DNA of 60,295 nucleotides from positions 1 through 60,295 of the forward strand of contig NZ_FOOC01000012.1 of assembly GCF_900113085.1 (NCBI RefSeq). The letters run 5' to 3'. Under the pieces are notes generated by a model. The model made no database searches and had not been told where the DNA came from. It saw nothing but the letters and a program-made list of their open reading frames with translations. This document shows, piece after piece, positions 1 through 15,739 of this stretch. How positions within the stretch are numbered: the stretch's first letter is position 1; the number at the start of each line of letters is the position of its first letter. Source of the stretch: Fontimonas thermophila. Its GTDB lineage: Bacteria > Pseudomonadota > Gammaproteobacteria > Nevskiales > Nevskiaceae. A program made the translations under genes and the position numbers.

Positions 1-269
1 CGTACGACTGCCAGCAGGTCATCCAGCGAAAGGCCCAGGCTTTTACGCAAGACGAGCACGATGGACTCCTGGGCCGGCGTCAGCGTGGTTTGCAGTCGAT
101 GAGGGGTATGGGAGGCGTCATGAACCGATGCACGCTTCTTCCAGCGAGCGATGGTGGAGACACTCACGCCAAAGCGCTGGGCCAGAACCCTCATGGGCTC
201 CTTGCTGACCTGGATCTCGGCGCGGATCCTGGGTGTCGTGGTGGCGTTCTTGTGCAGCCTCAGATGCAT
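1..269 (-). CDS. IS481-family transposase, N-terminal part (cut by window edge)
   Basis: Reading leftward from the ATG at 269, 89 codons stay open to the window edge. The protein starts [16 protein letters not shown], then has a helix-turn-helix ([18 protein letters not shown]) and the segment [16 protein letters not shown], followed by [13 protein letters not shown]. This arrangement is typical of the N-terminal DNA-binding part of IS481-family (DDE, rve-type) transposases; the catalytic domain would lie outside the window. The gene points away from the pilin genes, and its 5' end is only 84 bp from the first pilin start. I could not define the terminal inverted repeat or a target duplication, so the exact edge of the element is unknown. 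Confidence 0.8.
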
Positions 270-353
270 CGTTTCAGCTCCAGCATGACCTCTCGCGCCA
301 AGAGTAAACCACGGCGTGAACCAATTAACCAATCATCCGGGACACGACAGAGT

Positions 354-782
354 ATGCAAATGAGCAAGCAACAGGGTTTCACGCTGATCGAACTGATGAT
401 CGTCGTCGCGATCATCGGCATCCTGGCGGCCATCGCCATCCCGGCCTATCAGGACTACACCATCCGCTCGCAGGTCTCGGAAGGCCTGTCGCTGGCGGCT
501 GCGCCAAAAACCGCAGTGGCCGAGTTCTTCAACAACCGCGGCACCTTCCCGGCCAACAACGCCTCGGCAGGCGTGGTCGGAGCTAAATCCATCACCGGCA
601 ACTACGTGAAGCAGGTGGAGATCACCAACGGCCTGATCACCATCACCTACGGCAACAAGGCCAACAGCAAGATCATCGACAACACGCTGCTGCTGTCGCC
701 GCGTGACGCCGCGGGCGGCGTGGCCTGGACCTGCAAGACCGGCAGCCTGGCGGCCAAGTACGTGCCCTCGTCCTGCCGCTAA
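354..782 (+). CDS. pilA: Type IV major-type pilin (first copy)
   Basis: A 142-residue class IVa prepilin. The leader is short (MQMSKQQG), followed by the prepilin peptidase site G|FTLIEL and the hydrophobic N-terminal helix ([21 protein letters not shown]), with Glu at mature position 5. The mature protein is 134 residues and ends in a two-cysteine loop (WTCKTG to SSCR), as in PilA-type subunits. Start 354 is chosen because the leader then has normal length; ATG 360 is also possible. Further in-frame sequence upstream overlaps the transposase gene and is not pilin-like. PilD, encoded at 18742, should process it. No -24/-12 promoter is visible in the 84 bp between it and the IS gene. Confidence 0.93.
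381..463 (+). repeat. 83-bp exact repeat shared by the two pilin genes (copy 1)
   Basis: Bases 381-463 are identical to 1076-1158. The block encodes the N-terminal helix of both pilins. Sequence beyond it diverges clearly, which fits duplication with diversification of the exposed domain, or gene conversion of the helix. Confidence 0.9.
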
Positions 783-808
783 GACCATCGGTTTTGGACA
801 ATACCCGC

Positions 809-835
809 AAAAGGGCCGCGCGAGCGGCCCTTTTT
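809..835 (+). terminator. Rho-independent terminator after first pilin gene
   Basis: The perfect inverted repeat AGGGCCGC-GCGA-GCGGCCCT is flanked by an A run upstream and TTTTT downstream, 27 bp after the pilin stop. It separates the two pilin transcripts. Confidence 0.9.
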
Positions 836-992
836 CGTGTGGCCCCGTTTGTGGATCCGTTCGGGCCAGGTCCGGCGGCAGCGGCCGAAACGAGCCTTGC
901 AGGTCGCTGACAAATTTTGTCGCAAGCCGCCCTCCAGTGCCCGGCGCCGCCCGCGCGATCAGAGCAGGATGCTGTTTTTATTGGTTTTTCAC

Positions 993-1009
993 CTGGCGCG
1001 GTTGTTGCT
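993..1009 (+). promoter_or_regulatory. Sigma-54 (-24/-12) promoter of second pilin gene
   Basis: CTGGCGCGGTTGTTGCT matches the RpoN consensus YTGGCACGRNNNTTGCW with a single difference (A to G). The GG at 995-996 and GC at 1007-1008 have the required 10-base spacing. Transcription would start near 1020, about 20 bp before the ATG at 1043. Known pilA genes of pseudomonads use RpoN with PilR; pilR/pilS are not in this window. Confidence 0.85.
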
Positions 1010-1042
1010 CGACACAGTGAGCCTGCGTTGGGGAGAGGAGCG

Positions 1043-1477
1043 ATGAAGCCGACTCGACAGCCCGCCCGCGGTTTTACGCTGATCGAACTGATGATCGTCG
1101 TCGCGATCATCGGCATCCTGGCGGCCATCGCCATCCCGGCCTATCAGGACTACACCATTCGCTCGCAGGTGGCCGAGGGCCTGTCGCTCGCGTCCGGCGC
1201 CAAGGCTGCCGTTTGGGATTTCATGTCCAACACGGGCCGCACCCCGGCGACGAACGCCTCGGCTGGCCTGCCGAATGCGGCGTCGATCACCGGCAATTAT
1301 GTGGCGTCGGTCACCGTTACCAACGGTGTCATCGAGGTGGCGTTCGGCCGCAAGGTCAATGCCAAGATCAATGGCCAGACGCTGCAACTCTCGCCGCGCA
1401 GCGAGGAAGGCAGTATCGTCTGGAGCTGCCGCGGTGGTACGCTGGCGGCGCGGTATCGGCCCAGTAGCTGTCGCTGA
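1043..1477 (+). CDS. pilA: Type IV major-type pilin (second copy)
   Basis: A 144-residue prepilin with leader [10 protein letters not shown], cleavage site G|FTLIEL and a 134-residue mature subunit, the same mature length as the first pilin. The N-terminal helix is identical to the first copy through TIRSQV; the globular part differs but keeps the C-terminal cysteine loop (WSCRGG to SSCR). The start is supported by a strong ribosome site (GGAGAGGAG) and by the sigma-54 promoter at 993-1009. Earlier in-frame sequence lies upstream of that promoter and is rejected. It is followed by its own terminator and then by two GT-C-like membrane genes. Confidence 0.94.
1076..1158 (+). repeat. 83-bp exact repeat shared by the two pilin genes (copy 2)
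   Basis: Second copy of the block at 381-463, offset by 695 bp. It could support RecA-dependent deletion or exchange between the two pilin genes. Confidence 0.9.
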
Positions 1478-1507
1478 AGATAAGACCCGGCGCTGGATAT
1501 CCACCCG

Positions 1508-1539
1508 CAGGGGCCGCATCGGCGGCCCTGATCGTTTTT
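1508..1539 (+). terminator. Rho-independent terminator after second pilin gene
   Basis: CAGGGGCCGC and GCGGCCCTG pair with one bulged G around a short ATCG loop, and a T run follows at 1535-1539. It resembles the terminator after the first pilin gene, consistent with duplication of the unit. Confidence 0.82.
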
Positions 1540-1585
1540 CATTCCCGGTTTTGCATACCTGACCTCCGATACTTCCGTCCTGGCG

Positions 1586-3592
1586 ATGCCGGCCCTGCCA
1601 TCCGTGAACCCGCGCGCACGCTTTTGGGTTGGGCTTGCGCTGCTGCTGCTCGTCACCGCCGGCGTCTATGCGCCGGGCCTGCACGGCGATTTTCTGTTCG
1701 ACGATGCGGCGAATCTCTCGGCGCTGGGGGACATGGGGGCGATCGACGATGCCGCGGCGCTGGCCCGGTATCTGACCTCGGGCACCGCCGATCCGACCGG
1801 GCGTCCGCTGGCCCTGCTCAGTTTTCTGCTCGATGCCCGCGACTGGCCGGCCGATCCCTATCCATTCAAGCGCACCAATCTGCTGCTGCACCTGCTGAAC
1901 GTAGGTCTGCTGGCCGTGGTGCTGCGCGAGCTGATGCGCGGGATGCGGCCGGCCGCGGTAAGACCGGGCGAGGAGGACACCGTCGCCGTGCTGGGCGCCG
2001 CGCTCTGGGGCCTGCACCCGTTCCTGGTGTCCACCACGCTCTATGTCGTGCAGCGCGAGGCCATGCTGCCGGCCACGTTCACGCTGCTCGGTATCTGGGG
2101 TTGGAGCCGGGCGCGGCGCGATCTGGAGCAAGCCCCGGAGCGTGCCGCCATGCGCATGGCGGCATTCTTGATCGGCTGCACCGCGGCGGCGACGCTGTGC
2201 AAGGCCAATGGCGTGCTCCTGCCCGTGCTGATCGGCGCGCTGGAACTCACGGTGCTGCGCGCAACCCCGACCGATCCGCGCGCACAAGCCATTCTGCGCC
2301 GCACACGCCTGTTGCTGCTGGCGCTGCCGTCGCTCGCACTCACAGCGACCCTGCTCGCGATGGGCGTGCACGCCGCGATGTCGGATCTGTCGGCGTGGCG
2401 GCCGTGGACGCTCACCGAGCGCACTCTGACCCAGCCGCGGGTGTTGCTGGACTATTTGAGCCAGTTGCTGCTGCCACGGCCTTATACCAGCGGCCTGTTC
2501 AACGATGACTTTCCGGTCTCACATAGCCTCACTGCGCCGGTCACAACCCTGCCGGCACTGCTCGGCGTTGCGGGTCTGATCGCGCTGGCGCTGTGGCGGC
2601 GACGGCACTGGCCGGTGCTGTCCGCGGCCCTGCTGTTTTACTTCGGCGGACAGTCGATCGAATCGACGGTGATTCCGCTGGAGCTTTATTTCGAACACCG
2701 CAATTATCTGCCGGCGATGCTGCTGTTCTGGCCGCTGGCCCTGGGGCTGCAGCGGATCCGGCGCACGGATACCCAGCCCGCGGCGGTGCGCCGCGCAGCC
2801 GTTGCGGCCATGCTGCTGCTGCCAGTGGCGCTCGCCGTAATGACCGGGCTGCGCGCCGAGCTGTGGGGCAAGCCGCTGGAACAGGCCCTGGTCTGGGGTG
2901 CGCTGAGCCCGCATTCGCCACGCGCGCAGGCCTATGCGGCACAGGCGGAAATGGCCATGCAACGGCCGGATCTGGCCATCAGCCGGCTGACCGGTTTTGC
3001 CGCAAGAACCCCGCCCGACCTGCAGATCGCGCTGACTCTGATCGATGCCCACTGCCAGCTCGGTTCGGTGCCGCCTGCTGCACTGGAGATGGCGCGCGCC
3101 GCGATGCGGCAGACACGCGACACCGGCCGGCTGTTCGTGACCTGGGCTCTGGACAAGATCGAAACCCGGCCGTGTGCCGCGATCGACGCCTCCGTCATCG
3201 CCGAGCTGATCCGGCTCGGTCTGGAAAACCCGCGGCTTCAGGCCTCCCCGGCCCGGATTCAGGATCTACACCACCTGACTGGCCGGCTCGCGCTCGCCGC
3301 CGGCGATGCCAAGGCCGCGCTGAGCGCGTTCTCGTCGGCGATGGCGGTGATGCCACGGCCCACGCTCGCCGCCCGGCAGGCCGCCCTGCTCGGCCAGCAC
3401 GGATTTCCGCAGCTCGGGTTGCAACATCTGGACGCATGGCAGGATAGCGTCCACGTTGCCGATACCTCGTGGGGCATGCGCCGCATCCATGCCTGGGTGC
3501 TGGCCACGCAACGGTACTGGGAACGCGAATTCGCCATCCTGCGCGAAACCCTGCTCGCCGATCTCGCCGCCACCGGAGACACGCCCTCATGA
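1586..3592 (+). CDS. Polytopic GT-C-like membrane protein, candidate pilin/glycan glycosyltransferase 1
   Basis: A 668-residue protein with many hydrophobic segments and, after about residue 440, an Ala-rich soluble region that looks like helical (TPR-type) repeats. The first periplasmic loop has an Asp-Asp pair (FLFDD, residues 39-40), as in GT-C enzymes that use polyprenyl-linked sugars. Other motifs are GRPLALLSF, VVQREAM, TLCKANGVLLP and LELYFEHRNYLP. The same set occurs in TMTC-like TPR membrane proteins, and all recur in the next gene. Its place directly after the pilins suggests a pilin O-glycosyltransferase or glycan polymerase; this is inference. The stop overlaps the next start (ATGA). 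Confidence 0.75.
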   Translation: MPALPSVNPRARFWVGLALLLLVTAGVYAPGLHGDFLFDDAANLSALGDMGAIDDAAALARYLTSGTADPTGRPLALLSFLLDARDWPADPYPFKRTNLLLHLLNVGLLAVVLRELMRGMRPAAVRPGEEDTVAVLGAALWGLHPFLVSTTLYVVQREAMLPATFTLLGIWGWSRARRDLEQAPERAAMRMAAFLIGCTAAATLCKANGVLLPVLIGALELTVLRATPTDPRAQAILRRTRLLLLALPSLALTATLLAMGVHAAMSDLSAWRPWTLTERTLTQPRVLLDYLSQLLLPRPYTSGLFNDDFPVSHSLTAPVTTLPALLGVAGLIALALWRRRHWPVLSAALLFYFGGQSIESTVIPLELYFEHRNYLPAMLLFWPLALGLQRIRRTDTQPAAVRRAAVAAMLLLPVALAVMTGLRAELWGKPLEQALVWGALSPHSPRAQAYAAQAEMAMQRPDLAISRLTGFAARTPPDLQIALTLIDAHCQLGSVPPAALEMARAAMRQTRDTGRLFVTWALDKIETRPCAAIDASVIAELIRLGLENPRLQASPARIQDLHHLTGRLALAAGDAKAALSAFSSAMAVMPRPTLAARQAALLGQHGFPQLGLQHLDAWQDSVHVADTSWGMRRIHAWVLATQRYWEREFAILRETLLADLAATGDTPS

Positions 3593-5520
3593 CCCCGCCC
3601 TCTCCCCTGCTCCAGCGCGGCAGCCTGTGGATGGCCATCGCGATGCTGATCACCGCAGCGCTGTACTGGCCGGGCCTGCGTGGCGGGTATGTGTTCGACG
3701 ACTATCCGAACATCGTCGACAACACCGCGCTGCAGATCGAATCGGTGAGCGTACCCGCGCTCGTCCGCGCCGCGCTCTCCTCGCCGTCGAGCGCGTTCAA
3801 GCGCCCGCTGGCTTCGGTGAGCTTTGCCTTGAACCACGCCTTCACCGGGCTCGATCCGTTCTGGATGAAGCTCACCAACCTCGCCCTGCATCTGCTCAAC
3901 GGCGGACTGCTGTTCCTGCTCGGGTGCGCCCTGCTGCGCGCCGCCCGGCCACTCGCCGACGACGCCGCGGGCCGCCGCATGGCCGCCCTGCTCGCGGCCG
4001 CCTGGCTGCTGCTGCCGATCAACCTCACCGCCGTGCTTTACGTCGTGCAGCGCATGGAAAGCCTGGCGCAGATCTTCATCGTCCTCGGCCTGCTCGGCTA
4101 CCTGCGCGGCCGCCGCGAAATGCAGACCGAGCCGTGGCGTGGCGCCGTCATGGCCGCGGCAAGCCTCGTCGTGATGACCGGCCTCGGCCTGCTGGCCAAG
4201 GAAACCGCCGTGCTGCTGCCGCTGCTCGCGTTCATCCTCGAATGGCTGGTGCTCGGCGGACTGAGCCGCGGCAGTGCCACGCGTACCCCATTGCTGCTGA
4301 TCTTCGTCGGCGTGCTCGGTGTGCCGCTCGTCGTCGGCAGCCTGTGGGTCATCCCGATGGTGCTGGACCCGCAGATCTGGGTACACCGCGATTTCACGCT
4401 CGGGCAACGCCTGCTCACCGAGGCGCGCGTGCTCGTCGCCTACATCGCCTGGACCTTCATCCCCCTGCCCGGCTGGCTGTCGTTCTATCACGACCACTTC
4501 CCCGTCTCGACCGGGCTGACCCAGCCGTGGACCACCCTGCCGGCCCTGGTCGTGATCGCCGCATGGGCAGCGCTCATCTTCGTCGTGCGCCGACGCCGCC
4601 CGCTGCTCGCGCTCGGCCTGGCCTGGTATCTGGCCGCCCACAGCCTGACCGGTACGATCCTGCCGCTGGAACTGGTCTTCGAACACCGCAACTATTTCGC
4701 CAGCTATGCGCTGCTGCTCGCCGCGTTGCCGCTGCTGTGGCCGCTGCCGGACACATCCGCGGATGCGCAGTCCGTGCCGGAGCGCAGACCCACACAGCTT
4801 CTGGTCGGCGCGCTGCTCGTCTTCTGGTCGCTGTTCACCGCCCTGTCGGCTCTGGCCTGGAGCCACCCGCTGCGCCTCGCCGTGGAACTCGCCGGTCGGG
4901 CGCCGCATTCGCCGCGGGCGCAGTACGAACTCGGCCGCACCGCGCTGGTCCTGTCCGCCTATGACCCCCACTCGCCGCTGATCGAGACCGCGCAACAGGC
5001 CTTTGAAACCGCCGCGCGCCTGCCCGGCGCCTCGATCCTGCCGGAGCAGGCCCTGATCTACATGAACGCACGGATGAACAGACCGATCGCGGAGAACTGG
5101 TGGCAGCACATGTTCGAGAAAATCCGCGCCCATCCGCCGAGCGCCGAGGAAGACGGCGCGATCATGGCCCTGACCCGCTGCGCGCGCGATGGTGACTGCG
5201 CACTGCCGGTGGACAAGATGATCGAGCTCTACGCCACGGCCCTGAGTCACCCCAACCCGCGCGCGGGCCTGCTCATCGCCTACGGCGACTATGCCTGGAA
5301 TGTGCTACACGACCCCGCACTGGCCGAACGCCTGGTCCGCGACGCGGTGGCACAGGCGCCGCACGAGCCTGCCTACCGCGTGACGCTGATCCAAATCCAG
5401 CTCGCAACCGGCGACATCACCGCGGCCACCGAGCAGCTCCGCGAACTGGAGCGCCTCAACCGATGGGGCACGCTCGATGAAGAGATCACCGCACTGCGCG
5501 CGGCCATGCCGGCCTCATGA
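3589..5520 (+). CDS. Polytopic GT-C-like membrane protein, candidate pilin/glycan glycosyltransferase 2
   Basis: A 643-residue paralogue of the preceding gene. It keeps the early Asp-Asp motif (YVFDD, residues 37-38), FKRPLASVSF, VVQRMES, GLLAKETAVLLP, SFYHDHFPVS and LELVFEHRNYF, then a soluble helical-repeat tail after about residue 420. The start at 3589 is set by the ATGA overlap with the upstream stop; longer in-frame extensions would lie inside that gene. The two copies are well diverged, so they may recognise different acceptors (two pilins) or different donors. Function is inferred from the fold-type motif and from position. Confidence 0.75.
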   Translation: MTPPSPLLQRGSLWMAIAMLITAALYWPGLRGGYVFDDYPNIVDNTALQIESVSVPALVRAALSSPSSAFKRPLASVSFALNHAFTGLDPFWMKLTNLALHLLNGGLLFLLGCALLRAARPLADDAAGRRMAALLAAAWLLLPINLTAVLYVVQRMESLAQIFIVLGLLGYLRGRREMQTEPWRGAVMAAASLVVMTGLGLLAKETAVLLPLLAFILEWLVLGGLSRGSATRTPLLLIFVGVLGVPLVVGSLWVIPMVLDPQIWVHRDFTLGQRLLTEARVLVAYIAWTFIPLPGWLSFYHDHFPVSTGLTQPWTTLPALVVIAAWAALIFVVRRRRPLLALGLAWYLAAHSLTGTILPLELVFEHRNYFASYALLLAALPLLWPLPDTSADAQSVPERRPTQLLVGALLVFWSLFTALSALAWSHPLRLAVELAGRAPHSPRAQYELGRTALVLSAYDPHSPLIETAQQAFETAARLPGASILPEQALIYMNARMNRPIAENWWQHMFEKIRAHPPSAEEDGAIMALTRCARDGDCALPVDKMIELYATALSHPNPRAGLLIAYGDYAWNVLHDPALAERLVRDAVAQAPHEPAYRVTLIQIQLATGDITAATEQLRELERLNRWGTLDEEITALRAAMPAS

Positions 5521-5524
5521 GTCG

Positions 5525-6838
5525 GTGTCCACCATCGACCGCGTGGATACACTGCCCACCCCGCGCAGCGCACCGTCGAATACCGTGCTCCCACAACCCC
5601 GGCTCTCGACGCTGACCACCGACACCTTGGCAGTGACGGTCAGCACTCTGATCAGAACCGGGCTGCAGGCGGCGCTGCTGGTCGTCATCGCACGCGCGCT
5701 CGGCCCTCACCACTACGCCGCCTTGACCGCCCTGTTCGGCATCGCCATGGCCGTGGCCACGCTGTCGGCTGGCGGCGCCGCGGTCGTGATGGTCCGCGAA
5801 GTGGCCGCCCAGCGGCGCAGCCTCACCCAGGCCTGGACCCAGGCCCTGGGCTGTCTGCTCGTCAGCGCACCGCCGCTGAGTCTGTTAGCCATCGGCCTTG
5901 CCATCGGCCTGACACCGCCGGACACGGACCGGTGGGCGATCGCCGCCATCTGCGTTGCCGAGGTCGTCCTCACCCCATGGTGCACGATCTCGGCGGCGAG
6001 CTTTCAGGCGGCCGCGGCGATGCGGTCCTATGCAGCCCTGCTGGCACTGCCGGCCGCGGTACGGTTGATGGCCGGGTTCCTGCTGCTCGCACTCGCCCCT
6101 GCCGCGGAACACGCCTTGCAGACGTGGGCATTGCTCCACGTCCTGGCTTGCGCACTCGCCGCAATGTTGTGTCATGCCTTCGCGCGCCACCGGCACGGCC
6201 CTCTCGGACCCATCTCGGTAAGCGCCCTTTGGGACGAGCTGCGCAGCGGCTGGGGATTCGCCGCCGGTGGCACGGCACAGGCGACCTACGCCACGGTTGA
6301 CAAAGTCATGGTCCTGCGCCTGTGCGAAAGCACCCAGGCCGGTGCCTATGCGATTGCCACCCGTCTGATGGAATTGGCCACGATTCCGGCATGGTCGGCT
6401 TCGGCCGCACTCGCACCGCGATTGTTCGGCCTGGCTCCGCCGCCACGTTGGCAGGCGCCGGCCTTGGTGATTGGCCCGGCGCTGGTCGCGGCCATGGGCG
6501 TGGCCCTGTTGGGCGCGTCGATCCCGTGGCTGTTCGGACCGGCCTATCAACAGGCCGCACACCTGACTGCGCTGCTTGCCGGCATGCCGGCCATCATCGC
6601 CCTGCGCATTTATCTGCAGCTACGCCTGAACACGGGCGGTCGGCAAACCGCAGCAGCCTCTGGACTGGCGATCGGCGCCTGTCTCAACCTCGGGTTTAAT
6701 GCCGTGCTGTTACCCCGGATCGGAGTGTATGGCGCCGTACTGGCCCTGCTGTGCACCGAGGCCGCGGTCATCGTCCTCATGGCCATTACACTGCGTGCCA
6801 ACCGCATCTCTTTACTCAACCACCGGCATCCGCATTGA
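5525..6838 (+). CDS. Wzx-like polysaccharide flippase (MOP superfamily)
   Basis: About 437 residues, almost entirely hydrophobic, with roughly 12 membrane segments. It begins with a short polar leader and then a pattern typical of Wzx/oligosaccharide flippases: an amphipathic first helix followed by ARALGPHHYAALTALFG, and later GWGFAAGGTAQATYATVDK with VMVLRLCESTQAGAYAIATR. It would flip undecaprenyl-linked glycan across the inner membrane. The start is probably the GTG at 5525, four bases after the upstream stop; a second GTG lies 18 bases further on. It is the only flippase candidate in the cluster. Confidence 0.8.
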   Translation: MSTIDRVDTLPTPRSAPSNTVLPQPRLSTLTTDTLAVTVSTLIRTGLQAALLVVIARALGPHHYAALTALFGIAMAVATLSAGGAAVVMVREVAAQRRSLTQAWTQALGCLLVSAPPLSLLAIGLAIGLTPPDTDRWAIAAICVAEVVLTPWCTISAASFQAAAAMRSYAALLALPAAVRLMAGFLLLALAPAAEHALQTWALLHVLACALAAMLCHAFARHRHGPLGPISVSALWDELRSGWGFAAGGTAQATYATVDKVMVLRLCESTQAGAYAIATRLMELATIPAWSASAALAPRLFGLAPPPRWQAPALVIGPALVAAMGVALLGASIPWLFGPAYQQAAHLTALLAGMPAIIALRIYLQLRLNTGGRQTAAASGLAIGACLNLGFNAVLLPRIGVYGAVLALLCTEAAVIVLMAITLRANRISLLNHRHPH

Positions 6839-6839
6839 C

Positions 6840-7532
6840 ATGACGTCGAGGCATTGGGAAGCGCATGAGCTGGAATCCGTTACACGGTGTCCGTACTGCC
6901 AGAGCGGACAGCGACGTATCGCCTATGCCGCGATTCCCGATCGCATCGGCACCACCCAGGGAACCTGGACCTATTGGGAGTGCCGTGACTGCCGCAGCCT
7001 TTACGTCAGTCCGCGCCCGACACCGACGACCATCGGTCGCGCCTATGCGCAGTACTACACCCACGACCAGTGCGATGAACGGCCCCGGCAAGGAGTGTTG
7101 GACCGCTGGGCCCTGTCGGTACGGCAGAGCTATCTCGCCCGGAAATTCGGTTTTGCCAAACCGAAGGGCAGCCGCTGGCGCTGGGTGCTCACCAACCGCG
7201 ATGGCATCTTCCATCGCTGTTTCGGTGCCGACTGGTTCGACTTGTGCGCACCCCAGCACCTGTCCCTGCCTTCCGGCCCGGCACTACGAGCCTGTCTCGA
7301 AAACCTCGGCTTTGCGGTGCGTCGGCGTCAGCGTGGCGCACACGCGCAGTCGCACTGGCGTGCCTGCCAGGCGGTGCGGCGCGCGGACACCCGGGAGAAC
7401 ATCTACATCGCAAGCTTCACCGGACGCAAAACCGCCTGGGGGACTTTTTGGCTCGATGGCTTGCTCTGGCTTATCCCCGGCTGGCAGGGAGATCTGGTAC
7501 TGCAATGCAGGAAAAACATGTGCAAGACATAA
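6840..7532 (+). pseudogene. Zinc-ribbon SAM-methyltransferase homologue lacking its catalytic core
   Basis: A 230-residue open frame. The N-terminus has a zinc ribbon (Cys17, Cys20, Cys48, Cys51) and the LYVSPRPTP segment seen at the front of many glycan-cluster methyltransferases. From about residue 119 (NRDGIFHRCFGADWFDLCAPQHLSLPS) it matches the segment that normally follows the Rossmann domain. Nothing between the two parts resembles the SAM-binding fold: there is no D-x-G-x-G-x-G motif and no acidic strand. About 110 residues appear to be deleted in frame. It is probably not a methyltransferase any more, although the frame is intact and the gene is tightly packed (2 bp after the flippase, 28-bp overlap with the next gene). 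Confidence 0.6.
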
Positions 7533-8356: not shown

Positions 8357-8418
8357 CACCGTTCTGGGGAGCTTCACCTGTCGCCATCCTTGTTCCCGTG
8401 TCTAACCGTGAATCCGAG

Positions 8419-9579
8419 ATGCACCCCGTCACCGGCCCGGCACGCCGTCCTCCACGGCCGCGACTGGGACTGCTGATGCCCGACTTCCGCGGCGGCGGTG
8501 CCGAACAGGTCATGGTGACGCTGGCCCAGGAGATTGCACGGCGCGGCTTCGACGTCTGCCTCGTGGTGCTGCGCGCGCACGGCCCACTCGCCGTCGACGG
8601 ATCCGCGGCCGTGCATCAACACGTGCTCGATGCCCGCACTACCCGCGCCGCCGTCAGTGGCCTCCGGCGCTGGCTGCAGGCGTGGCAGCCGCAGGTGCTC
8701 TTGGTATCGCCCTCCCACCTGGGCTGGGCCGCGGCATGGGCCGCGCGCGCAACCACTACGCGGGTCTTCATCCGCGAAGCCAGTACGCTGTCCGCCGAAC
8801 TCGCGGCCCTGCCCTGGACCCAGCGCTGGATCCGCCTGGCGGCGGAAAAATATCTGTGCCGGAATGTCCGGCGCGGCGCACTGTCGCACCGCGCCGCCGC
8901 CGATCTCGCCCACTGCCTGAGACTGCCGCCGGACCGCATCTGCGTGCTACCCAACCCGGTGATTTCGGCGACGCTGTGGCAGCGCGGAGCGCACCGGGTC
9001 GCGCAAACCCCGGCAGCGCTGGATCCAAACCGTCCGATGCGCTACTTGAGTGCCGGCCGGCTCGACCGTCAAAAAGGCATGGATGTGTTGATCCGCGCTT
9101 TTGCCGCCCTCAAGCCGCGCCCCGGCGACCGGCTGCTGATCGCCGGCGAAGGGGCCGAACGCCCCGCGCTGGAAGCGCTGGCGAACACTCTGGGCGTGGC
9201 GTCGCAAGTCGAATTCCTCGGCTATCGGGTCGATCTGATCGACCTCATGCTGGAGGCTTCGGCCTTCGTTCTGGCCTCGCGCTGGGAAGGCCTGCCCGGG
9301 GTTTTGATCCAGGCCTTGGCGAGCGGGCTCCCGGTGGTGGCGACCGACGCACCCGGTGGCGCGGCCGAAATCCTCGAGCAAGGCCGCTGGGGCAGGCTGG
9401 TGCCCGTGGAAGACGTGCATGCACTCTCCGCCGCAATGCAGGCGCTCAGGTACGAACGCCCCGGTCAACCGGACGATGCGTGGCGACAACGCTACGACAT
9501 CGTCCACGCCACCGACCGTTATCTGGACTTCATGGATCTGCCATACCGCAACGGAGACTCCCGACCATGTGCGGAATAG
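8419..9579 (+). CDS. Glycosyltransferase family 4 (GT-B)
   Basis: A 386-residue GT-B enzyme. The N-terminal domain opens with LGLLMPDFRGGGAEQVM, the usual acceptor-side glycine loop. The C-terminal nucleotide-sugar domain has YLSAGRLDRQKGMDVLIRAF and ASRWEGLPGVLIQALASG followed by VVATDAPGGAAEI. The second acidic residue of the E-x7-E motif is Gln here (EGLPGVLIQ), a known variant. ATG 8419 is used; a GTG 20 bases upstream and an internal ATG before DFRGGG are alternatives. It overlaps the asparagine synthase gene by 13 bp. Confidence 0.85.
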   Translation: MHPVTGPARRPPRPRLGLLMPDFRGGGAEQVMVTLAQEIARRGFDVCLVVLRAHGPLAVDGSAAVHQHVLDARTTRAAVSGLRRWLQAWQPQVLLVSPSHLGWAAAWAARATTTRVFIREASTLSAELAALPWTQRWIRLAAEKYLCRNVRRGALSHRAAADLAHCLRLPPDRICVLPNPVISATLWQRGAHRVAQTPAALDPNRPMRYLSAGRLDRQKGMDVLIRAFAALKPRPGDRLLIAGEGAERPALEALANTLGVASQVEFLGYRVDLIDLMLEASAFVLASRWEGLPGVLIQALASGLPVVATDAPGGAAEILEQGRWGRLVPVEDVHALSAAMQALRYERPGQPDDAWRQRYDIVHATDRYLDFMDLPYRNGDSRPCAE

Positions 9580-11492
9580 CGGGAGTGCTACGCCCGCGGA
9601 CGCCAGCCGGCGATGCGCAGGCCGATGCGGCGGCCGTGCGGCGCATGACGGCGGCGCTCGCGCACCGTGGACCGGATGGCGCGGGGCACTGGTTCGATGC
9701 CGAGGCCGGAATCGGCCTGGGACATCGACGGCTCGCGATCATCGACTTGTCCGAACAGGGTGCGCAGCCGATGGTGTCCGCCGATGGGCGCTGGGTATTG
9801 GCGTTCAACGGCGAGATTTACAACTTCCGGGATCTGCGCCAGAGGCTGGACACCGCCGGCCCGCATCCGTGGCGTGGGCATTCCGACACCGAGGTCCTGC
9901 TCGAAGCCATCGCTGCCTGGGGCCTGGAACCGACCCTGGAGCGCGTCGATGGAATGTTCGCGCTGGCCGTGTGGGATCGTGCACAGCAGACGCTGTATCT
10001 GGCCCGCGACCGCTTCGGAGAAAAGCCCTTGTACCTGGCCTGGGACGGCCGACGGCTGACGTTCGCCAGCCAGTTGCGGGCGCTCAGCCTCGCCGATACC
10101 GAACCCCGGGCGCCCGATCCTGCCGGGCTGCGCTGGCTGCTGCGGCTGGGGTACATCCCGGCGCCATGGACGCCGCTTGCCGGTGCGTTCAAGCTGCCGC
10201 CCGGCACCTTTTTGCGGGTCACGGCGGGCGATCCGCCGCCACGGGCCGCCGCCGAGCTCGCCGCGCGCTGCCAGCGCTACTGGGATGCAACGGCCTTCGC
10301 CCGGGTCTGTCGGACACAACCGCCATTGCAGGACCCTGCGCAAGCCCTGCATCTCATCGAGCGGCGTCTCGAAGAAGCGATTGCCAGACGCATGATCGCC
10401 GATGTCCCGCTCGGGGCTTTCCTGTCGGGCGGGATCGACTCCTCTCTGGTCGTTGCCCTGATGAGCAAACTCAGCCGGCGACCGGTGCGCACCTTCACCA
10501 TCGGCTTCGACGATCCCGCCCTGGACGAGACCCTGCCTGCCGCGGAGGTGGCCTCGGCCCTGGGCAGCGAACACCACGCCGAACGTCTGCGCATCGAGGA
10601 TGCCCTGGCCTTGCTGCCCCAACTCGATGGTGTCTATGACGAACCGCTCGCCGACCCTTCGCAGCTGCCGACGATCCTGCTGTGCCGTGTCGCACGCCGG
10701 CATGTGAAGGTCGCCCTGTCTGGCGACGGCGGCGACGAGCTGTTCTTCGGCTATCAACGGCAGTTCAATGCCCTGGCGCTGTGGCGCGTTCTGCGTCGCA
10801 CTCCCCGGGGGATACGCCACGCCGCCGCGCAACTGTGCACGATGCTCGGGCGGATCGACACCGGGCATACGCGGCGGCACTGGCGCCGCGCGGCTTTTCT
10901 GCGCAGCGACAGCGCCGCGGCCCTGCACAGGGCGATGTCCGAGCACTGGGCCATGCCGCACGAAGACCCCACCGCACTGGCGACGGTGGCCGACCCGCGC
11001 CTCGACGACATGGCCAACATGCGGCTCTTCGACCAGACCTTCTACCTGCCAGGCGCGTTGATGCCGAAAAGCGACCGCGCATCGATGGCCGTCGGTCTGG
11101 AATTGCGCATGCCGTTCCTAGAAACCAGCGTGCTGGAAATGGCCTGGCGGATACCCGACACCCTGCTGTTCCGGCAAGGCCAGGGCAAATGGATTCTGCG
11201 GCAATTGCTCGCGCGCCATGTCCCGACAGCGATCGCCCAGCGCCGCAAGCAGGGTTTCGCCATTCCGCTGGCACGCTGGCTGCGCACCGAGCTGCGCGAC
11301 TGGGGCACACGGCTGATCCACGAGGCACCGGACATGCCGGAACTGGGACTCGACCGCCGCGCCCTCAGGGGATTGTGGACGCATCACCTGCGCGGGCGAA
11401 TCGATGCGAGCGATCCTTTGTGGACGGCATTGACGCTCCTGGCCTGGCTGCGTGCCAACCCGGCGACACGCCCGATCCCATGCGCATCCTGA
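9567..11492 (+). CDS. asnB: AsnB-type glutamine-dependent amidotransferase (asparagine synthase family)
   Basis: A 641-residue protein that starts MCGIAGV, so Cys2 becomes the catalytic N-terminal nucleophile after Met removal. The class II glutaminase domain shows HRGPDGAGHW, FNGEIYNF and HSDTEVLLEA. The synthetase domain has the PP-loop SGGIDSS near residue 288 and SGDGGDELFFGY. Within glycan clusters such enzymes often amidate a sugar acid (WbpS-like) rather than make asparagine; which applies here is not decidable from sequence alone. It overlaps both neighbours by 13 bp, so it belongs to the glycan operon. Confidence 0.88.
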   Translation: MCGIAGVLRPRTPAGDAQADAAAVRRMTAALAHRGPDGAGHWFDAEAGIGLGHRRLAIIDLSEQGAQPMVSADGRWVLAFNGEIYNFRDLRQRLDTAGPHPWRGHSDTEVLLEAIAAWGLEPTLERVDGMFALAVWDRAQQTLYLARDRFGEKPLYLAWDGRRLTFASQLRALSLADTEPRAPDPAGLRWLLRLGYIPAPWTPLAGAFKLPPGTFLRVTAGDPPPRAAAELAARCQRYWDATAFARVCRTQPPLQDPAQALHLIERRLEEAIARRMIADVPLGAFLSGGIDSSLVVALMSKLSRRPVRTFTIGFDDPALDETLPAAEVASALGSEHHAERLRIEDALALLPQLDGVYDEPLADPSQLPTILLCRVARRHVKVALSGDGGDELFFGYQRQFNALALWRVLRRTPRGIRHAAAQLCTMLGRIDTGHTRRHWRRAAFLRSDSAAALHRAMSEHWAMPHEDPTALATVADPRLDDMANMRLFDQTFYLPGALMPKSDRASMAVGLELRMPFLETSVLEMAWRIPDTLLFRQGQGKWILRQLLARHVPTAIAQRRKQGFAIPLARWLRTELRDWGTRLIHEAPDMPELGLDRRALRGLWTHHLRGRIDASDPLWTALTLLAWLRANPATRPIPCAS

Positions 11493-12640
11493 TCCTCTCC
11501 GACCTGCCGCCCTTCGTCCTCGGCGGCGCCGAACGGCAAGTCCTCCTGCTGGCGCAGGCCTGGCAGAGCGCCGGCCATCGTGTGCAAGTGCTCGCCCACC
11601 GCACGCCCAGCGGGGTGCACGCGGGGATTCCCGCACGCCATATCCCCCACTTGCGGCACGCCGGCCGGATCCTGCGTGCGGTGACGTTTGCGCTGGGCCT
11701 CGCCCTGCTGCTGCTGCGCGCGCAGCGCCGGGCGGATCTCCTCTACTGCCGGTTCTTCGCAGAAGCGACCTGGGTCTGCGTCGTGCTCAAGCGGTTGGGG
11801 TTGCTGCGGTTGCCACTGGTGGTAACGCCGGCCGCCGCGGGAGAAGGTCGGCACGCCGATTTCGCGCGGCTGCGCCGTCTATGGGGTCACCGTCTCCTGC
11901 TGCGCTGGGCGCGGCGCGAGGTCGATGCCTTCAATGCCATCTCCGAAGGCATCGCCCAGGCTCTCGCCGAGGCGGGCCTACCGGTTTCGGCGCGTATCCC
12001 CAACGGGGTGCGAATCGACGACGACCCCGTCCCGGAACCGGCCGCGTCCTACTGGCTGTTCGTGGGACGGCTCACGCCGCAAAAGGGGGTGGATGTCTTG
12101 CTCGCCGCACTGGCGCTACTGCGCGGGCAGGGTCAGCGTCTGACCCTGCGCATCGTCGGAGAAGGCCCGGCAGAAACGGCATTGCGGGACCAGTGCGCAC
12201 GCCTTCGCCTGACCGATCAGGTCCATTTCCTCGGGCGTCTGCCGCATGCCGATATCCTCGGCTTGCTGCCGCAGGCCAGAGCGCTGGTTCTGCCTTCGCG
12301 CTATGAGGGTCTCTCCAACGCCGCGCTCGAAGCCCTGGCCGCCGGAACACCGGTGATCGCCACGCCTTGCGGCGGCATCGACCGTTATCTCGACGAAAAC
12401 ACCGGCTGGGTCTGCGCGGCCACGCCCGATGCGCTGGCCGCCGCGCTGGCCGCCAGCGCGGCGGAATCACCGGCGCGTCACCAGCAGCGGCGTCACCACT
12501 GCCGGGCGCTGGCACGGACGCACTTCTCGATCACGGCCTGCGCCGATGCCCATCTGCTGCTGTTCGAGCGGCTGTGCCGCGCCGCGCCAGGGCCCGCTCG
12601 TACAGGCCGATGTAACGATCGACCATCGCATCGAGGCTGA
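11480..12640 (+). CDS. Glycosyltransferase family 4 (GT-B)
   Basis: A 386-residue GT-B enzyme. It starts MRILILSDLPPFVLGGAERQ, and the donor-binding domain carries FVGRLTPQKGVDVLLAAL and PSRYEGLSNAALEALAAG, including the E-x7-E motif. The ATG overlaps the end of asnB. This is the last plus-strand gene of the island. Its last 110 bp overlap, tail to tail, the 3' end of the minus-strand glycosyltransferase that follows. Confidence 0.85.
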   Translation: MRILILSDLPPFVLGGAERQVLLLAQAWQSAGHRVQVLAHRTPSGVHAGIPARHIPHLRHAGRILRAVTFALGLALLLLRAQRRADLLYCRFFAEATWVCVVLKRLGLLRLPLVVTPAAAGEGRHADFARLRRLWGHRLLLRWARREVDAFNAISEGIAQALAEAGLPVSARIPNGVRIDDDPVPEPAASYWLFVGRLTPQKGVDVLLAALALLRGQGQRLTLRIVGEGPAETALRDQCARLRLTDQVHFLGRLPHADILGLLPQARALVLPSRYEGLSNAALEALAAGTPVIATPCGGIDRYLDENTGWVCAATPDALAAALAASAAESPARHQQRRHHCRALARTHFSITACADAHLLLFERLCRAAPGPARTGRCNDRPSHRG

Positions 12641-13604
12641 AACCGTCACGCTGCCGCGCACGAGCCCCGGCGGACAGCGCCGCCCACAACGCCGGCTCAT
12701 CTCGCAGCCGCCGTATGGCCGCGGCGAGTGCCTGCGCATCGTCGGGCGGGACCAGTAAACCGCTGACGCCGTCTTCGATGATCTCGACCACCGAGGATGC
12801 AGTGGTGGCAACCACCGGCAGACCATGGCTCATGGCTTCCAGGGGCACCAAGGGCAAGCCTTCGTGCCGCGAAGGGAAGACCAGCACGTCCGCTGCGCGG
12901 TACACCTCGGCCATTGCCGCTGCGCCGTCGATGCGCGGCAGCGCCCGCGCATTGGCCGGCAAGTTCACGCCAGCCGTACCGCCATGCCGGTCCACGGTAT
13001 AGATCAACTCGAAGCCCTCGCCGAGCGCCGCCAACATCGGCGGCAACAGGTCCACGCCCTTGCGGCGACTCCAGTTCCCGCAATACAGCACCCTGAACGT
13101 GCGTCCCGGCGGTCGCATCGGCGCGGCGGTGAACGGCATATTCGCCACACCATTGTGGACGACGACCGGCACGATGCCCGGAAAAGCGCGGCGCACTTCC
13201 TCCGCCGTCGCCCGGCTCACCGCTGCCACCACATCGGCCTGCGCGAGCAGCGCGCGCTCCTGCGGGTAGATCTTCCAGCGATGATAGAGGCGCTGCAGCC
13301 ACGGTTTGCGCAGATCGCCGAATGCCGTATGCACGCACAAATGCACGGTCGCGACGAGTGGCAGATCCTGTGGCACGAAGCGCGGGGATAGCCAGGATGC
13401 GACGTGCACGACCGACACCCAGTCAGGCACCCGCGGGCGCGGCACCGACTGCGGCGCATACTCCGCCCGATGCGGCAGCCAGCTTATCTCGGCGCGGATG
13501 CCGCGTTGCAGAAGACCATCTGCGAGCTGCTCCGTGAACCGATCGGTCCCGGTCGCGGTGCGTACCGCAGGCAGCCAGACGCCCAGCGGCCGTGTTTTGC
13601 TCAT
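12531..13604 (-). CDS. Glycosyltransferase family 4 (GT-B)
   Basis: A 357-residue GT-B enzyme. The C-terminal donor domain has VLYCGNWSRRKGVDLL and FPSRHEGLPLVPLEAMSHG, with both acidic residues of E-x7-E present. Start 13604 is set by an ATGA overlap with the stop of the epimerase gene upstream. Together with that gene and the GT2 gene it forms a minus-strand unit converging on the plus-strand glycan operon. The C-terminal residues (after DRYIGLYERAL) are encoded opposite the end of the neighbouring gene. Confidence 0.83.
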   Translation of the reverse strand: MSKTRPLGVWLPAVRTATGTDRFTEQLADGLLQRGIRAEISWLPHRAEYAPQSVPRPRVPDWVSVVHVASWLSPRFVPQDLPLVATVHLCVHTAFGDLRKPWLQRLYHRWKIYPQERALLAQADVVAAVSRATAEEVRRAFPGIVPVVVHNGVANMPFTAAPMRPPGRTFRVLYCGNWSRRKGVDLLPPMLAALGEGFELIYTVDRHGGTAGVNLPANARALPRIDGAAAMAEVYRAADVLVFPSRHEGLPLVPLEAMSHGLPVVATTASSVVEIIEDGVSGLLVPPDDAQALAAAIRRLRDEPALWAALSAGARARQRDGFSLDAMVDRYIGLYERALARRGTAARTAADGHRRRP

Positions 13605-14692
13605 CCCAGACCGGACAGATAGCGGACGATACGCGCCGAGGGCCCGGGATCCGCCGGCCACCGCGGCGGGCGGCGCAGGGCCGCAGGGCCGTCATTGCAC
13701 ACCCAGTCTACGAGATCGGCGGGCAGATCACGTTCCATGAGCGCGTTGGCTCCCAGCCCGTCCTGGCGCTCGGTCGTCTGCCGCATGATGACGGTCGGAA
13801 CACCCAGGCATGCCAGCTCCTCCTGATTGGAACCGCCATCGGTGAGCACGCATTCGGCCTCCGCCGCCATACACAGAAAGGCGCGATACCCCATCCGCGG
13901 ATAGCGCCGCAGACGCGGCAGGCGATCGAACACGGCCGGCCAGCGCGAACGCTCCAGCCGCTTGTGCGTGGCCGGATGCAACACGAAGTGGACGTCGCGG
14001 TGCTCGGCCAATGCGGCCACTGTCCCCATCAGCCGGTCGAAGCGGCGCGCGCTGTAAAGATTCTGGAACCGGTGCAGGGACACCAGCACGCCCTGCCCCG
14101 ACGGACACATGGCGCGTTGCAGTGCGCCGGTCATGCGCACGGCATCGAGAATGGTGTTGCCCTGGGTTTCGACGACCTCGCAGCGATACCGGCGCATCTG
14201 CATGGCTTCGCGCGGCCCGGGGCAGAACGCCACGTCCGTGAGGCGGAAAACGAGCCGGCGCGTGAGCTCCTCGGGGAACGGATCGAGCAGCTGGGCGGAT
14301 GTCAGGCCGCTCTCCACGTGCAGCACGCGCGCCCCGACCCTGCGCGCGGCCAGCGCGCCCAGCAGGGTCGACAGGGTATCGCCGTGGACGAGGACATCGA
14401 GCGCGCCCTCGATCCGTTGCAATGCGCGCAGCTCGCGAATCAGCCCGGCCAGCGCCCGCGGTGCGAAGCCGAGCAGGGCGCCGACGGTCGCATTCTCTCC
14501 GGCCGGTACGGCCGCGCGCCGCGGTGCGGCAATGGCGAACTCGTGCAACAGATCATCCATGGTGTCGCGATGCTGCCCGGTCATCAACAGATGCGTGGGG
14601 AGCCCGGCTTGCTCGCAGGCGCGGATCACGGGCGCGACCTTGATCAGCTGGGCCCGCGTGCCGATCACGAAAACCACGGATGCCGATGTCAT
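13601..14692 (-). CDS. UDP-N-acetylglucosamine 2-epimerase (WecB family)
   Basis: A 363-residue member of the non-hydrolysing UDP-GlcNAc 2-epimerase family, which makes UDP-ManNAc. Visible motifs are VIGTRAQLIKVAPVI at the N-terminus, VHGDTLSTLLG with HVESGL (usually HVEAGL), and TDGGSNQEELACLGVPTV with RQTTERQ, where the conserved Glu and Arg sit. The start at 14692 (MTSASVVFVIGTR) is preferred; an in-frame extension upstream adds unrelated residues. It would supply a ManNAc-type donor for the glycosyltransferases around it. Confidence 0.82.
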   Translation of the reverse strand: MTSASVVFVIGTRAQLIKVAPVIRACEQAGLPTHLLMTGQHRDTMDDLLHEFAIAAPRRAAVPAGENATVGALLGFAPRALAGLIRELRALQRIEGALDVLVHGDTLSTLLGALAARRVGARVLHVESGLTSAQLLDPFPEELTRRLVFRLTDVAFCPGPREAMQMRRYRCEVVETQGNTILDAVRMTGALQRAMCPSGQGVLVSLHRFQNLYSARRFDRLMGTVAALAEHRDVHFVLHPATHKRLERSRWPAVFDRLPRLRRYPRMGYRAFLCMAAEAECVLTDGGSNQEELACLGVPTVIMRQTTERQDGLGANALMERDLPADLVDWVCNDGPAALRRPPRWPADPGPSARIVRYLSGLG

Positions 14693-14731
14693 CGAGTGCC
14701 TTGTGCGTTCAACGCGCTTGGGTGGGTGCAC

Positions 14732-15592
14732 TCAGTCGGATCTCCGGCTATAGACCAGCGCGGTGATCTGCTCCGATACCAGACCGATGAGAAACACAAT
14801 CACCGCGGCGCTGAGCAGCAGCGTGCTCATGTTGGTGAATCGCCCCATGGTCATGTAGGTGTACGCGTAATATCCGGCACCGAGAACAAAGAAGAGAAAC
14901 GACGCGGGCACGAACAGTTTCAAGGGCGAATACAGCGTCGCGATCTTGAAGATGATCAGCAAGAACCGCACACCGTCCTTGAATGGACGGATGTGGCTGG
15001 ACGTGCCGACACGCCGGTACACGGGAATCGGTTCATACGCCACTGTGTAGGCGCTGCGGAAGAACGCCATCGTGATCGTGGTCGGATAGGAAAATCCGTT
15101 GGGCAGCAGGTGCAGGAATTCCCGGAACTTGTCGGCCCGGACCGCGCGAAAGCCGGAGGTCAGGTCGGCGATCCGGTGGCCGGTCACCCACGAGGCGATG
15201 CGGTTGTACAGCCCGTTGGCAACGCCGCGATGGAGATTGGCCTGGCCATCGCGGCCGCGTGCGCCAACGACCATGTCATAGCCCTCGTCCAGACGCGCGA
15301 GCAGTCGCGCGATCAGCGCGGGGTCGTGCTGGCCGTCGGCGTCCATGAAGACGAGGATCTCCCCGCGTGCGGCGCGGGCACCGCGCTTGATCGCGGCGCC
15401 GTTGCCCATCGAGTAGGGCGAAGACAGGCAGATGACGCCCTGCTGCGCACAAAGACTGCGGGTTGCGTCGGTGGAACCGTCGTCGACGACGATGATCTCG
15501 GCATCCGGCTGGGCCGCGCGCAGCCGCGGGAGCAGCTCGACGAGCGCCTGCGCCTCGTTCTTGGCGGGCAGAATGATGCTGATGGTGCTCAA
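14732..15592 (-). CDS. Glycosyltransferase family 2 with two C-terminal membrane helices (DPM1/GtrB-like)
   Basis: About 286 residues. The GT-A domain has ISIILPAKNEAQALVELLP, IIVVDDGSTDATRS and the metal-binding VFMDADGQHDP. After PNGFSYPTTITMAFFRS comes a region with two membrane spans near the C-terminus. Such enzymes load a sugar onto undecaprenyl phosphate, which would feed GT-C transferases such as those at 1586 and 3589. The likely start is a TTG at 15592 (LSTISIILP); no ATG sits near the conserved N-terminus and longer versions enter the pilB promoter region. It is transcribed divergently from pilB. Confidence 0.8.
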   Translation of the reverse strand: MSTISIILPAKNEAQALVELLPRLRAAQPDAEIIVVDDGSTDATRSLCAQQGVICLSSPYSMGNGAAIKRGARAARGEILVFMDADGQHDPALIARLLARLDEGYDMVVGARGRDGQANLHRGVANGLYNRIASWVTGHRIADLTSGFRAVRADKFREFLHLLPNGFSYPTTITMAFFRSAYTVAYEPIPVYRRVGTSSHIRPFKDGVRFLLIIFKIATLYSPLKLFVPASFLFFVLGAGYYAYTYMTMGRFTNMSTLLLSAAVIVFLIGLVSEQITALVYSRRSD

Positions 15593-15712: not shown

Positions 15713-15739
15713 GAGGGGTATCCAACCCTCATGTGAGCG

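What the first reader, a model, noticed from the sequence alone, without database searches (positions are those of the whole stretch)
1..15592. A glycan-assembly island sits between the pilin genes and pilBCD
Two pilins, two GT-C-like membrane proteins, a flippase, GT4 and GT2 glycosyltransferases, a UDP-GlcNAc 2-epimerase, an AsnB-type enzyme and methyltransferase-type genes form one block, bordered on one side by an IS481 gene and on the other by pilB. Lipid-linked sugar synthesis (GT2, epimerase, GT4), flipping (Wzx-like) and a GT-C transfer step are all represented, which is what an en bloc pilin glycosylation system would need. The link to pilin is inference from position; an O-antigen-like product is the alternative.
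Basis: partly seen in the sequence, partly recalled or inferred. Interest (0 to 1): 0.8.

Follow-up and report, generated by a model that had tools for sequence, protein, structure and literature searches.

The report
Pilin-linked GT-C sugar-transfer island
Next to the genes for its type IV pilus fibre this bacterium carries a sugar-assembly island whose membrane sugar-transfer enzymes belong to a little-described family that, in related bacteria, usually sits directly behind a pilin gene, so it most likely decorates pili with variable sugars.

Summary
The 'GT-C-like' proteins are GT-C enzymes with a TPR tail (structure predicted for the second; no Pfam or NCBIfam family above cut-off). Comparison makes the pilin link much stronger than position in one genome. 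In 24 of 24 genomes of the order with a full-length relative, one lies under 1 kb downstream of a pilin gene; 0 of 12 weak relatives do. The same 24, and 1 of the other 61, carry the GT2. Where pilB lies elsewhere (G033, G041, G045) the island stays with the pilins. Five of five GTC-less loci scanned hold a Wzy_C-type ligase in the slot. The window's genome has no Wzy_C protein and another surface-polysaccharide cluster. Best explanation: GT2 charges undecaprenyl monophosphate with a sugar, variable enzymes elaborate it, it is flipped, and the GT-C enzymes put it on pilin Ser/Thr. Glycosylation itself, en bloc transfer, sugar and site are not shown. An IS copy has separated pilA1 from its likely promoter. 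New variant of a known kind: TfpW-like in logic; homology to TfpW could not be tested.

The parts
1..349 (-). One end of an insertion sequence (transposase N-terminal part, cut by the contig end); terminus at 349
   Evidence: Copies at G000:C24, C25, C11; the C11 copy diverges right after this point; HTH hits below cut-off; PF13683 in the IS end on C9
354..782 (+). pilA1, type IV pilin (ATG 354; ATG 360 also possible)
   Evidence: PF00114 2.2e-26 and PF07963
813..835 (+). Hairpin plus T run after pilA1, terminator-like
   Evidence: Sequence, fold; the pattern scan did not list it
994..1009 (+). sigma-54-like promoter before pilA2
   Evidence: Pattern match; in named loci 23 of 109 regions of 300 bases before pilins match, against 88 of 4000 random stretches
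1043..1477 (+). pilA2, type IV pilin, C-terminus PSSCR
   Evidence: PF00114 2.5e-27
1510..1539 (+). Terminator-like hairpin and T-rich tail between pilA2 and GTC1
   Evidence: stem 1510-1529
1586..3592 (+). GTC1: GT-C family membrane protein with TPR-like tail, falls in the group of 'first' copies
   Evidence: Alignments, tree; no Pfam/NCBIfam hit above cut-off; not modelled itself
3589..5520 (+). GTC2: GT-C membrane protein with TPR tail, falls in the group of 'second' copies; starts in an ATGA overlap with GTC1
5525..6838 (+). Wzx-like flippase
   Evidence: PF01943 1.3e-11
6840..7532 (+). Methyltransferase-like remnant without SAM core
   Evidence: No Pfam hit, alignment
7505..8356 (+). SAM-dependent methyltransferase
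   Evidence: PF13489 1.7e-17
8416..9579 (+). GT4 glycosyltransferase (start uncertain; caller gives 8476)
   Evidence: PF13692 1.4e-33
9567..11492 (+). AsnB-type glutamine-dependent enzyme
   Evidence: PF00733 8.6e-97 and PF13522 3.2e-45
11480..12640 (+). GT4 glycosyltransferase
   Evidence: PF00534 1.4e-33
12531..13604 (-). GT4 glycosyltransferase
   Evidence: PF13692 1e-26
13601..14692 (-). UDP-GlcNAc 2-epimerase family protein
   Evidence: PF02350 8.8e-44; WecB below cut-off; solved relatives
14732..15592 (-). GT2 polyprenyl-phosphate-sugar synthase-like enzyme, conserved partner of the GT-C proteins
   Evidence: PF00535; relatives ArnC, dolichol-phosphate-mannose synthase, sll0501; co-occurrence
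15740..17476 (+). pilB (right border, not part of the glycan module)
   Evidence: PF00437 3.6e-152

Best explanation
A dedicated pilin O-glycosylation island. Conserved core: pilin(s), one or two GT-C/TPR enzymes and a GT2 of the polyprenyl-phosphate-sugar synthase type. GT2 charges undecaprenyl monophosphate with a first sugar in the cytosol (inferred from family). Variable island enzymes (GT4s, methyltransferase, AsnB, epimerase-family protein) extend or modify the lipid-linked sugar (inferred). The Wzx-like protein flips it (inferred). GTC1 and GTC2, with an invariant Asp pair in the first loop after the first helix, transfer it in the periplasm to Ser/Thr of the neighbouring pilin (target inferred from linkage; site unknown, a Ser/Thr two residues before the last Cys is a weak candidate). 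Shown here: the parts, the GT-C fold, conserved linkage, co-occurrence, slot exchange. Not shown: that any pilin is glycosylated, the sugar, the chain length, the lipid, en bloc or stepwise transfer.
For: GT-C fold of GTC2 and 15 invariant columns incl. D37, D38, R72, K204, E361, R367 in 82 relatives. Pilin under 1 kb upstream in 24 of 24 genomes of the order with a full-length relative, 0 of 12 weak relatives within 5 kb (coordinates). Named genomes: same-strand pilin within 3 kb upstream in 62 of 80 loci. Class sample: 19 of 29 loci. GT2 in 24 of 24 GTC genomes and 1 of 61 others, Fisher 2.8e-20, not corrected for relatedness; in 17 of 17 named loci that reach pilB. Island with pilins away from pilB in G033, G041, G045. 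Wzy_C ligases in five of five GTC-less slots scanned. No Wzy_C in the own genome. No PF00953- or PF02397-type relative in 98 loci with two queries. 113 cargo genes dominated by GT4, methyltransferases, sugar epimerases/dehydratases, GT2, flippases. Pilin/GT-C divergence correlated given PilB, r 0.49, p 0.008, n 16.
Against: No biochemical or mass-spectrometric evidence. Of 80 named loci, nine have room upstream but no same-strand pilin within 3 kb (L099, L110, L112, L114, L115, L119, L146, L152, L153), two (L101, L132) have only about 880 bases upstream without one, five have under 500 bases. Of 29 class loci ten show none, some without room or behind another GT-C copy. One extra GTC copy, G041:C10, has no pilin within 5 kb. 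Ser/Thr two residues before the last Cys is absent in 16 of 35 adjacent pilins of the order and present in 9 of 67 pilins of GTC-less genomes, so it is no firm site. GTC and GT2 co-occur partly because they are linked. GTC and GT2 distances given PilB do not correlate clearly (r 0.20, p 0.13). A flippase is not seen in every island: PF01943 matched 10 of 113 cargo genes from 22 loci.
Confidence: 0.8

Rival explanations
1. Single-sugar or stepwise version: each GT-C uses undecaprenyl-phosphate monosaccharide, one attaching the first sugar and the other adding the next, while the GT4s and flippase serve another glycan. The product is still a pilin glycan.
For: Reduced layout pilin, GT-C, GT2 in G069; Und-P-linked donors are usual for GT-C three-component systems (PMC11127046, passages); first and second copies differ as groups.
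Against: The 113 cargo genes of 22 loci include 26 GT4 and 11 GT2 matches and 10 flippases, more than a single sugar needs.
Confidence: 0.3
2. The island makes an O-antigen, capsule or exopolysaccharide and sits beside pilins by chance or history; GT-C proteins modify that polymer.
For: Flippase, GT4s, epimerase and AsnB are common in O-antigen loci (recalled); GT-C systems modifying O-antigens are known (PMC11127046, passages).
Against: Linkage to pilin in 24 of 24 genomes of the order; no PHPT relative found in 98 loci with two queries; another cluster in the genome has a PF00953 enzyme, a PF01943 flippase and an EpsG protein and Wza/Wzc-like genes (judged by eye).
Confidence: 0.08
3. The GT-C proteins are pilus assembly accessory factors (TfpY-like role) without transferase activity.
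For: Accessory genes behind pilA in P. aeruginosa include TfpX/Y/Z, and TfpY acts in assembly (PMC11841053, passages).
Against: GT-C fold with invariant acidic and basic residues and constant company of a GT2 in the order; TfpY and TfpZ are 235 and 245 residues with three TM segments.
Confidence: 0.05

Closest known systems
TfpW, GT-C arabinosyltransferase of P. aeruginosa group IV pilins
   Same: GT-C enzyme encoded downstream of the pilin, in a pilin plus accessory gene cassette with a terminator after the pilin (PMC11841053, passages)
   Different: Sequence relation to TfpW not tested (no sequence in reach); here often two copies with TPR tails, a GT2 partner and a glycan cassette; whether D-Araf genes exist in the genome was not searched
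Three-component periplasmic glycosylation systems (GtrA/GtrB/Gtr*, and the GT136 type)
   Same: Polyprenyl-phosphate-sugar synthase, flippase and GT-C transferase (PMC11127046, passages)
   Different: The prototypes modify O-antigens; here the linked gene is a pilin, and the islands add further cytosolic glycosyltransferases
PglL / PilO (TfpO) Wzy_C pilin oligosaccharyltransferases
   Same: Sit next to pilin genes (21 of 31 PglL homologues, PMC3643930, passages); found in the same slot in five GTC-less relatives
   Different: Different protein family; no Wzy_C in GTC1 or GTC2
Archaeal Agl N-glycosylation (AglJ, AglR, AglB; pathway recalled)
   Same: AglJ is the best NCBIfam hit of the GT2; a Wzx-like flippase and a GT-C transferase are shared; AglB is among the structural matches of GTC2
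   Different: AglJ hit far below its cut-off (112 against 325 bits); no evidence of Asn linkage

Membership tests
GT-C glycosyltransferase superfamily | GT-C transmembrane fold | tested here: met
GT-C glycosyltransferase superfamily | Conserved acidic motif in the first extracytoplasmic loop | tested here: met
   D37-D38 invariant in 82 sequences, just after helix 6-31; topology and catalysis not tested
PglL/PilO (Wzy_C) oligosaccharyltransferases | Wzy_C domain | tested here: not met
   No PF04932 in GTC1/GTC2 nor in the genome
TfpW-type pilin glycosyltransferases | GT-C gene directly downstream of a pilin gene | tested here: met
   Window, and 24 of 24 genomes
TfpW-type pilin glycosyltransferases | Sequence homology to TfpW | not tested
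   No TfpW sequence in reach; two TfpW papers are not held
TfpW-type pilin glycosyltransferases | Pilin is glycosylated | not testable with these tools
   Needs mass spectrometry
Three-component (GtrAB-like) systems | Polyprenyl-phosphate-sugar synthase | tested here: met
   By homology only: GT2 related to ArnC, dolichol-phosphate-mannose synthase, sll0501
Three-component (GtrAB-like) systems | Dedicated flippase | tested here: met
   PF01943 protein in the window; not seen in every related island
Three-component (GtrAB-like) systems | Acts on an O-antigen | not testable with these tools
   Needs chemistry
Wzx/Wzy O-antigen locus | Initiating phosphoglycosyltransferase in the locus | tested here: not met
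   No Pfam hit in the island; none by phmmer with two queries in window 1-15740 and 97 related loci
Wzx/Wzy O-antigen locus | Wzy polymerase | tested here: inconclusive
   No Pfam Wzy-type hit in the island; Wzy proteins are hard to detect
Archaeal AglJ equivalog | NCBIfam AglJ score above cut-off | tested here: not met
   112.1 against 325 bits

The most novel reading that the evidence does not exclude
TPR-tailed GT-C enzymes with a private GT2 are a separate, widespread gammaproteobacterial pilin glycosylation machine in which a variable oligosaccharide is built on undecaprenyl monophosphate, as in archaeal Agl pathways, and moved to pilin by two GT-C copies with different jobs; the glycan cassette is exchanged between species, perhaps under phage pressure.
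Probability: 0.3. Interest if true: 0.78.

Novelty: new variant of a known kind. Interest (0 to 1): 0.6.

Why it matters
Pili are phage receptors, and pilin glycosylation by TfpO or TfpW protects P. aeruginosa from pilus-specific phages (PMC11841053, passages). Known pilin transferases are mostly of the Wzy_C type, with TfpW as the GT-C case (recalled). A GT-C family without its own Pfam model, present in 104 of 369 sampled genomes of the class at E up to 1e-40 and often behind a pilin (19 of 29 loci looked at), would make pilin glycosylation commoner than annotated and give a ready list of pilin, transferase and glycan-cassette combinations for tests of specificity, phage evasion and glycan engineering.

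Tried and rejected
O-antigen locus: weakened, see rivals. Acceptor site: Ser/Thr two residues before the last Cys looked decisive in the first contrast (85 of 115 GTC-adjacent pilins against 0 of 18, one alignment column), but the order-level set gave 19 of 35 against 9 of 71 (the 71 include 4 other pilins of GTC genomes). By genome: 12 of 24 with GTC, 9 of 49 without. Within the window's genus 3 of 4 genomes against 0 of 7 (read; p about 0.024 by hand). Kept as a candidate only; the test did not ask for the preceding Pro. GTC and GT2 distances given PilB: r 0.20, p 0.13, not supported. One pilin per GT-C: rejected, since L009 (G039) shows one pilin and two GT-C, L031 (G051) two pilins and one GT-C. 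Two clean paralogue clades: not fully borne out; all 23 'second' copies lie on one side of a branch, but only 18 of 23 'first' copies group together. TfpW comparison: no sequence in reach; PMC2576659 and PMC3151058 not held. Literature: the listings showed me no paper on this GT-C/TPR family beside pilins; most subscription papers are not held. Foldseek alone ranked TPR proteins first, with OST chains lower; the GT-C ranking came from the VIA second look. Rows dropped: the cargo tally used 113 of 124 genes (11 from L134, L143, L152 left out); the Mantel test used 16 rows, 3 loci skipped for incomplete gene calls; the tree left 36 of 82 rows uncounted; of 53 relatives with a pilB match 40 places were fetched for the slot survey; Wzy_C was sought in five slots, others not scanned. 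Gene calls in relatives come from a home-made codon-score caller and miss genes in lower-GC contigs such as L018.
Full report
WHAT IS THERE. The window is the whole of contig C17 of a 2.73 Mb assembly. It starts inside an insertion sequence and reads pilA1, pilA2, two large membrane proteins (here GTC1 and GTC2), a PF01943 flippase, a methyltransferase-like remnant, a methyltransferase, a GT4, an AsnB-type enzyme and a GT4 on the plus strand; then a GT4, an epimerase-family protein and a GT2 on the minus strand; then pilB, pilC, pilD, coaE. GTC1 and GTC2 share an ATGA overlap. Terminator-like hairpins follow both pilins (the pattern scan listed only the second), as described for pilin accessory cassettes in P. 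aeruginosa (PMC11841053, passages). Base composition of the island does not stand out.

ORGANISM. G041 of the same genus has a contig of the same length (320,703) and gene order as Solimonas soli DSM 21787, and G056 a contig of the same length (412,284) as Stenotrophobium rhamnosiphilum. So the window comes from a relative of Solimonas in the sense of that genome collection; the species is not identified.

LINKAGE TO PILIN. In 85 genomes of the order, 24 have a full-length relative (E below 1e-90). All 24 have a pilin (E up to 1e-12) less than 1 kb upstream on the same strand; 0 of 12 weaker relatives (E 1e-21 to 1e-30, 8 of 12 with open frames of 463-480 residues) do within 5 kb. One additional copy, G041:C10, has none within 5 kb. 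Among 80 named loci (the best 80 of 504 confirmed stretches), 62 have a same-strand pilin within 3 kb upstream of the main GT-C block; L085 and L092 have one further up; five have under 500 bases upstream and two about 880; nine have room but none. In a sample of 369 genomes of the class, 104 have a relative at E up to 1e-40; of the 29 best-scored loci (30 fetched, the window's own left out), 19 show a pilin within 1.5 kb upstream and 16 a GT2 in the short flanks.

LINKAGE TO GT2. A GT2 relative (E up to 1e-70) occurs in 25 of 85 genomes: the same 24 and G012 (84% complete), where it lies beside pilB on a contig that ends about 12 kb further on without a GT-C; Fisher p 2.8e-20, not corrected for relatedness. 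All 17 named loci that reach pilB hold it, 72.6-79.5% identical; over all 80 loci 32 hold it, and the others do not reach pilB. In 16 loci GT2 has a median identity of 75% against 60% for PilB. Its solved relatives include ArnC, dolichol-phosphate-mannose synthase and sll0501; ArnC and dolichol-phosphate-mannose synthase make polyprenyl-phosphate sugars (recalled). No PF00953- or PF02397-type initiating enzyme was found by phmmer (two queries from the own genome, E up to 1e-4) in open frames of 98 loci, among them G012, which lacks a GT-C.

ISLAND FOLLOWS PILIN, NOT PILB. In G033, G041 and G045 pilin, GTC1, GTC2 and GT2 lie together while pilB is on another contig or far away. In G069 pilin, GT-C and GT2 lie together; the neighbours called in the 20 kb fetched look catabolic by eye and were not scanned.

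SLOT EXCHANGE. In the family, pilA and pilB flank different genes: nothing in G050 (about 220 bases between them), and Wzy_C proteins (PglL/PilO-type domain) in five of five GTC-less loci whose membrane protein I scanned (L005, L026, L028, L033, L034). In several members of the window's genus no pilin is called near pilB (L006, L008, L011-L013). The window genome has no PF04932 protein (the control found it in 9 of 14 genomes).

CARGO. Of 113 genes between the GT-C block and GT2 in 22 loci, 26 hit Glycos_transf_1 (GT4 type), 14 Methyltransf_23, 12 the epimerase/GDP-mannose dehydratase families, 11 GT2, 10 PF01943 (a protein can hit several families). So the middle varies while pilin, GT-C and GT2 stay.

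TWO COPIES. On a quick tree of 82 sequences (SH-aLRT support only) all 23 'second' copies lie on one side of a branch (95), with 12 uncounted rows; 18 of 23 'first' copies, GTC1 of the window among them, lie in another group (96), and 5 'first' copies (L085, L093, L094, L117, L138) elsewhere. This supports an old split between most first and second copies and suggests different roles.

PILIN AND GT-C TYPE. Pilin and GT-C distances correlate after removing PilB distance (r 0.49, p 0.008, n 16); pilin and GT2 r 0.39, p 0.015; GT-C and GT2 r 0.20, p 0.13. Ser/Thr two residues before the last Cys of the pilin is commoner next to GTC: 85 of 115 against 0 of 18 in a first, phylogenetically uneven set, 19 of 35 against 9 of 71 in the order. 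It is a candidate acceptor, not more.

ALTERNATIVE PRODUCT. Contig C10 of the genome carries a PF00953 phosphoglycosyltransferase, sugar-nucleotide genes (by eye), a PF01943 flippase, an EpsG-family protein and genes that look like Wza and Wzc (by eye). A Bac_transf protein lies on C18. So the pilin island is not the only surface-glycan locus.

MECHANISM. Most likely GT2 makes undecaprenyl-phosphate sugar, further cytosolic enzymes elaborate it, the flippase turns it over and the GT-C enzymes move it to pilin. This is the logic of three-component systems (PMC11127046, passages), with pilin as acceptor. Whether the donor is a monosaccharide or an oligosaccharide, and whether transfer is en bloc, is open.

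PILA1. The IS ends at 349, four bases before ATG 354. Another IS end lies at the start of C9 beside leuS, with a sigma-54-like site starting about 70 bases before it and a ribosome-binding-like stretch at the junction; the flanks share a short repeat. So pilA1 has probably lost its promoter, while pilA2 keeps a sigma-54-like site at 994. Joining C9 to C17 rests on the repeat and on synteny with leuS in relatives; other copies of this IS end exist in the genome.

Noticed in passing
window 1-360 and L163 (G000:C9:1-700): An IS copy sits between the likely ribosome-binding site and the start of pilA1, separating it from a sigma-54-like site on C9; pilA2 has its own at 994. pilA1 may be silent.
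   Followed up: partly
window 6840-7532: Methyltransferase-like ORF without a SAM-binding core, probably a remnant.
   Followed up: partly
L183, L184 (G000:C10:26001-66000): Separate surface-polysaccharide cluster with PF00953 enzyme, flippase, EpsG and Wza/Wzc-like genes; no Wzy_C protein was found in the genome.
   Followed up: partly
G041:C10:56754-58424: A near full-length GT-C relative without a pilin within 5 kb; possible other substrate.
   Followed up: no
L069-L074: Weaker relatives of the GT-C family, several about 475 residues long; none of the 12 found in the order has a pilin within 5 kb.
   Followed up: no
L005:9280-12470: In G044 the pilA-pilB slot holds a sulfatase-family membrane protein next to a Wzy_C protein, perhaps a pilin glycan modifier.
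   Followed up: no
L017, L019, L178 near pilA: Proteins of about 975 residues, resembling spermidine-synthase-type fusions by eye, recur between leuS and pilA.
   Followed up: no
L126 / G027: A MAG record named Verrucomicrobia has a contig of the same length (37,313) as a contig of G027 of the window's family, so the name is probably wrong.
   Followed up: partly
window 47063-47446: Bacterial RNase P class A RNA, minus strand.
   Followed up: no
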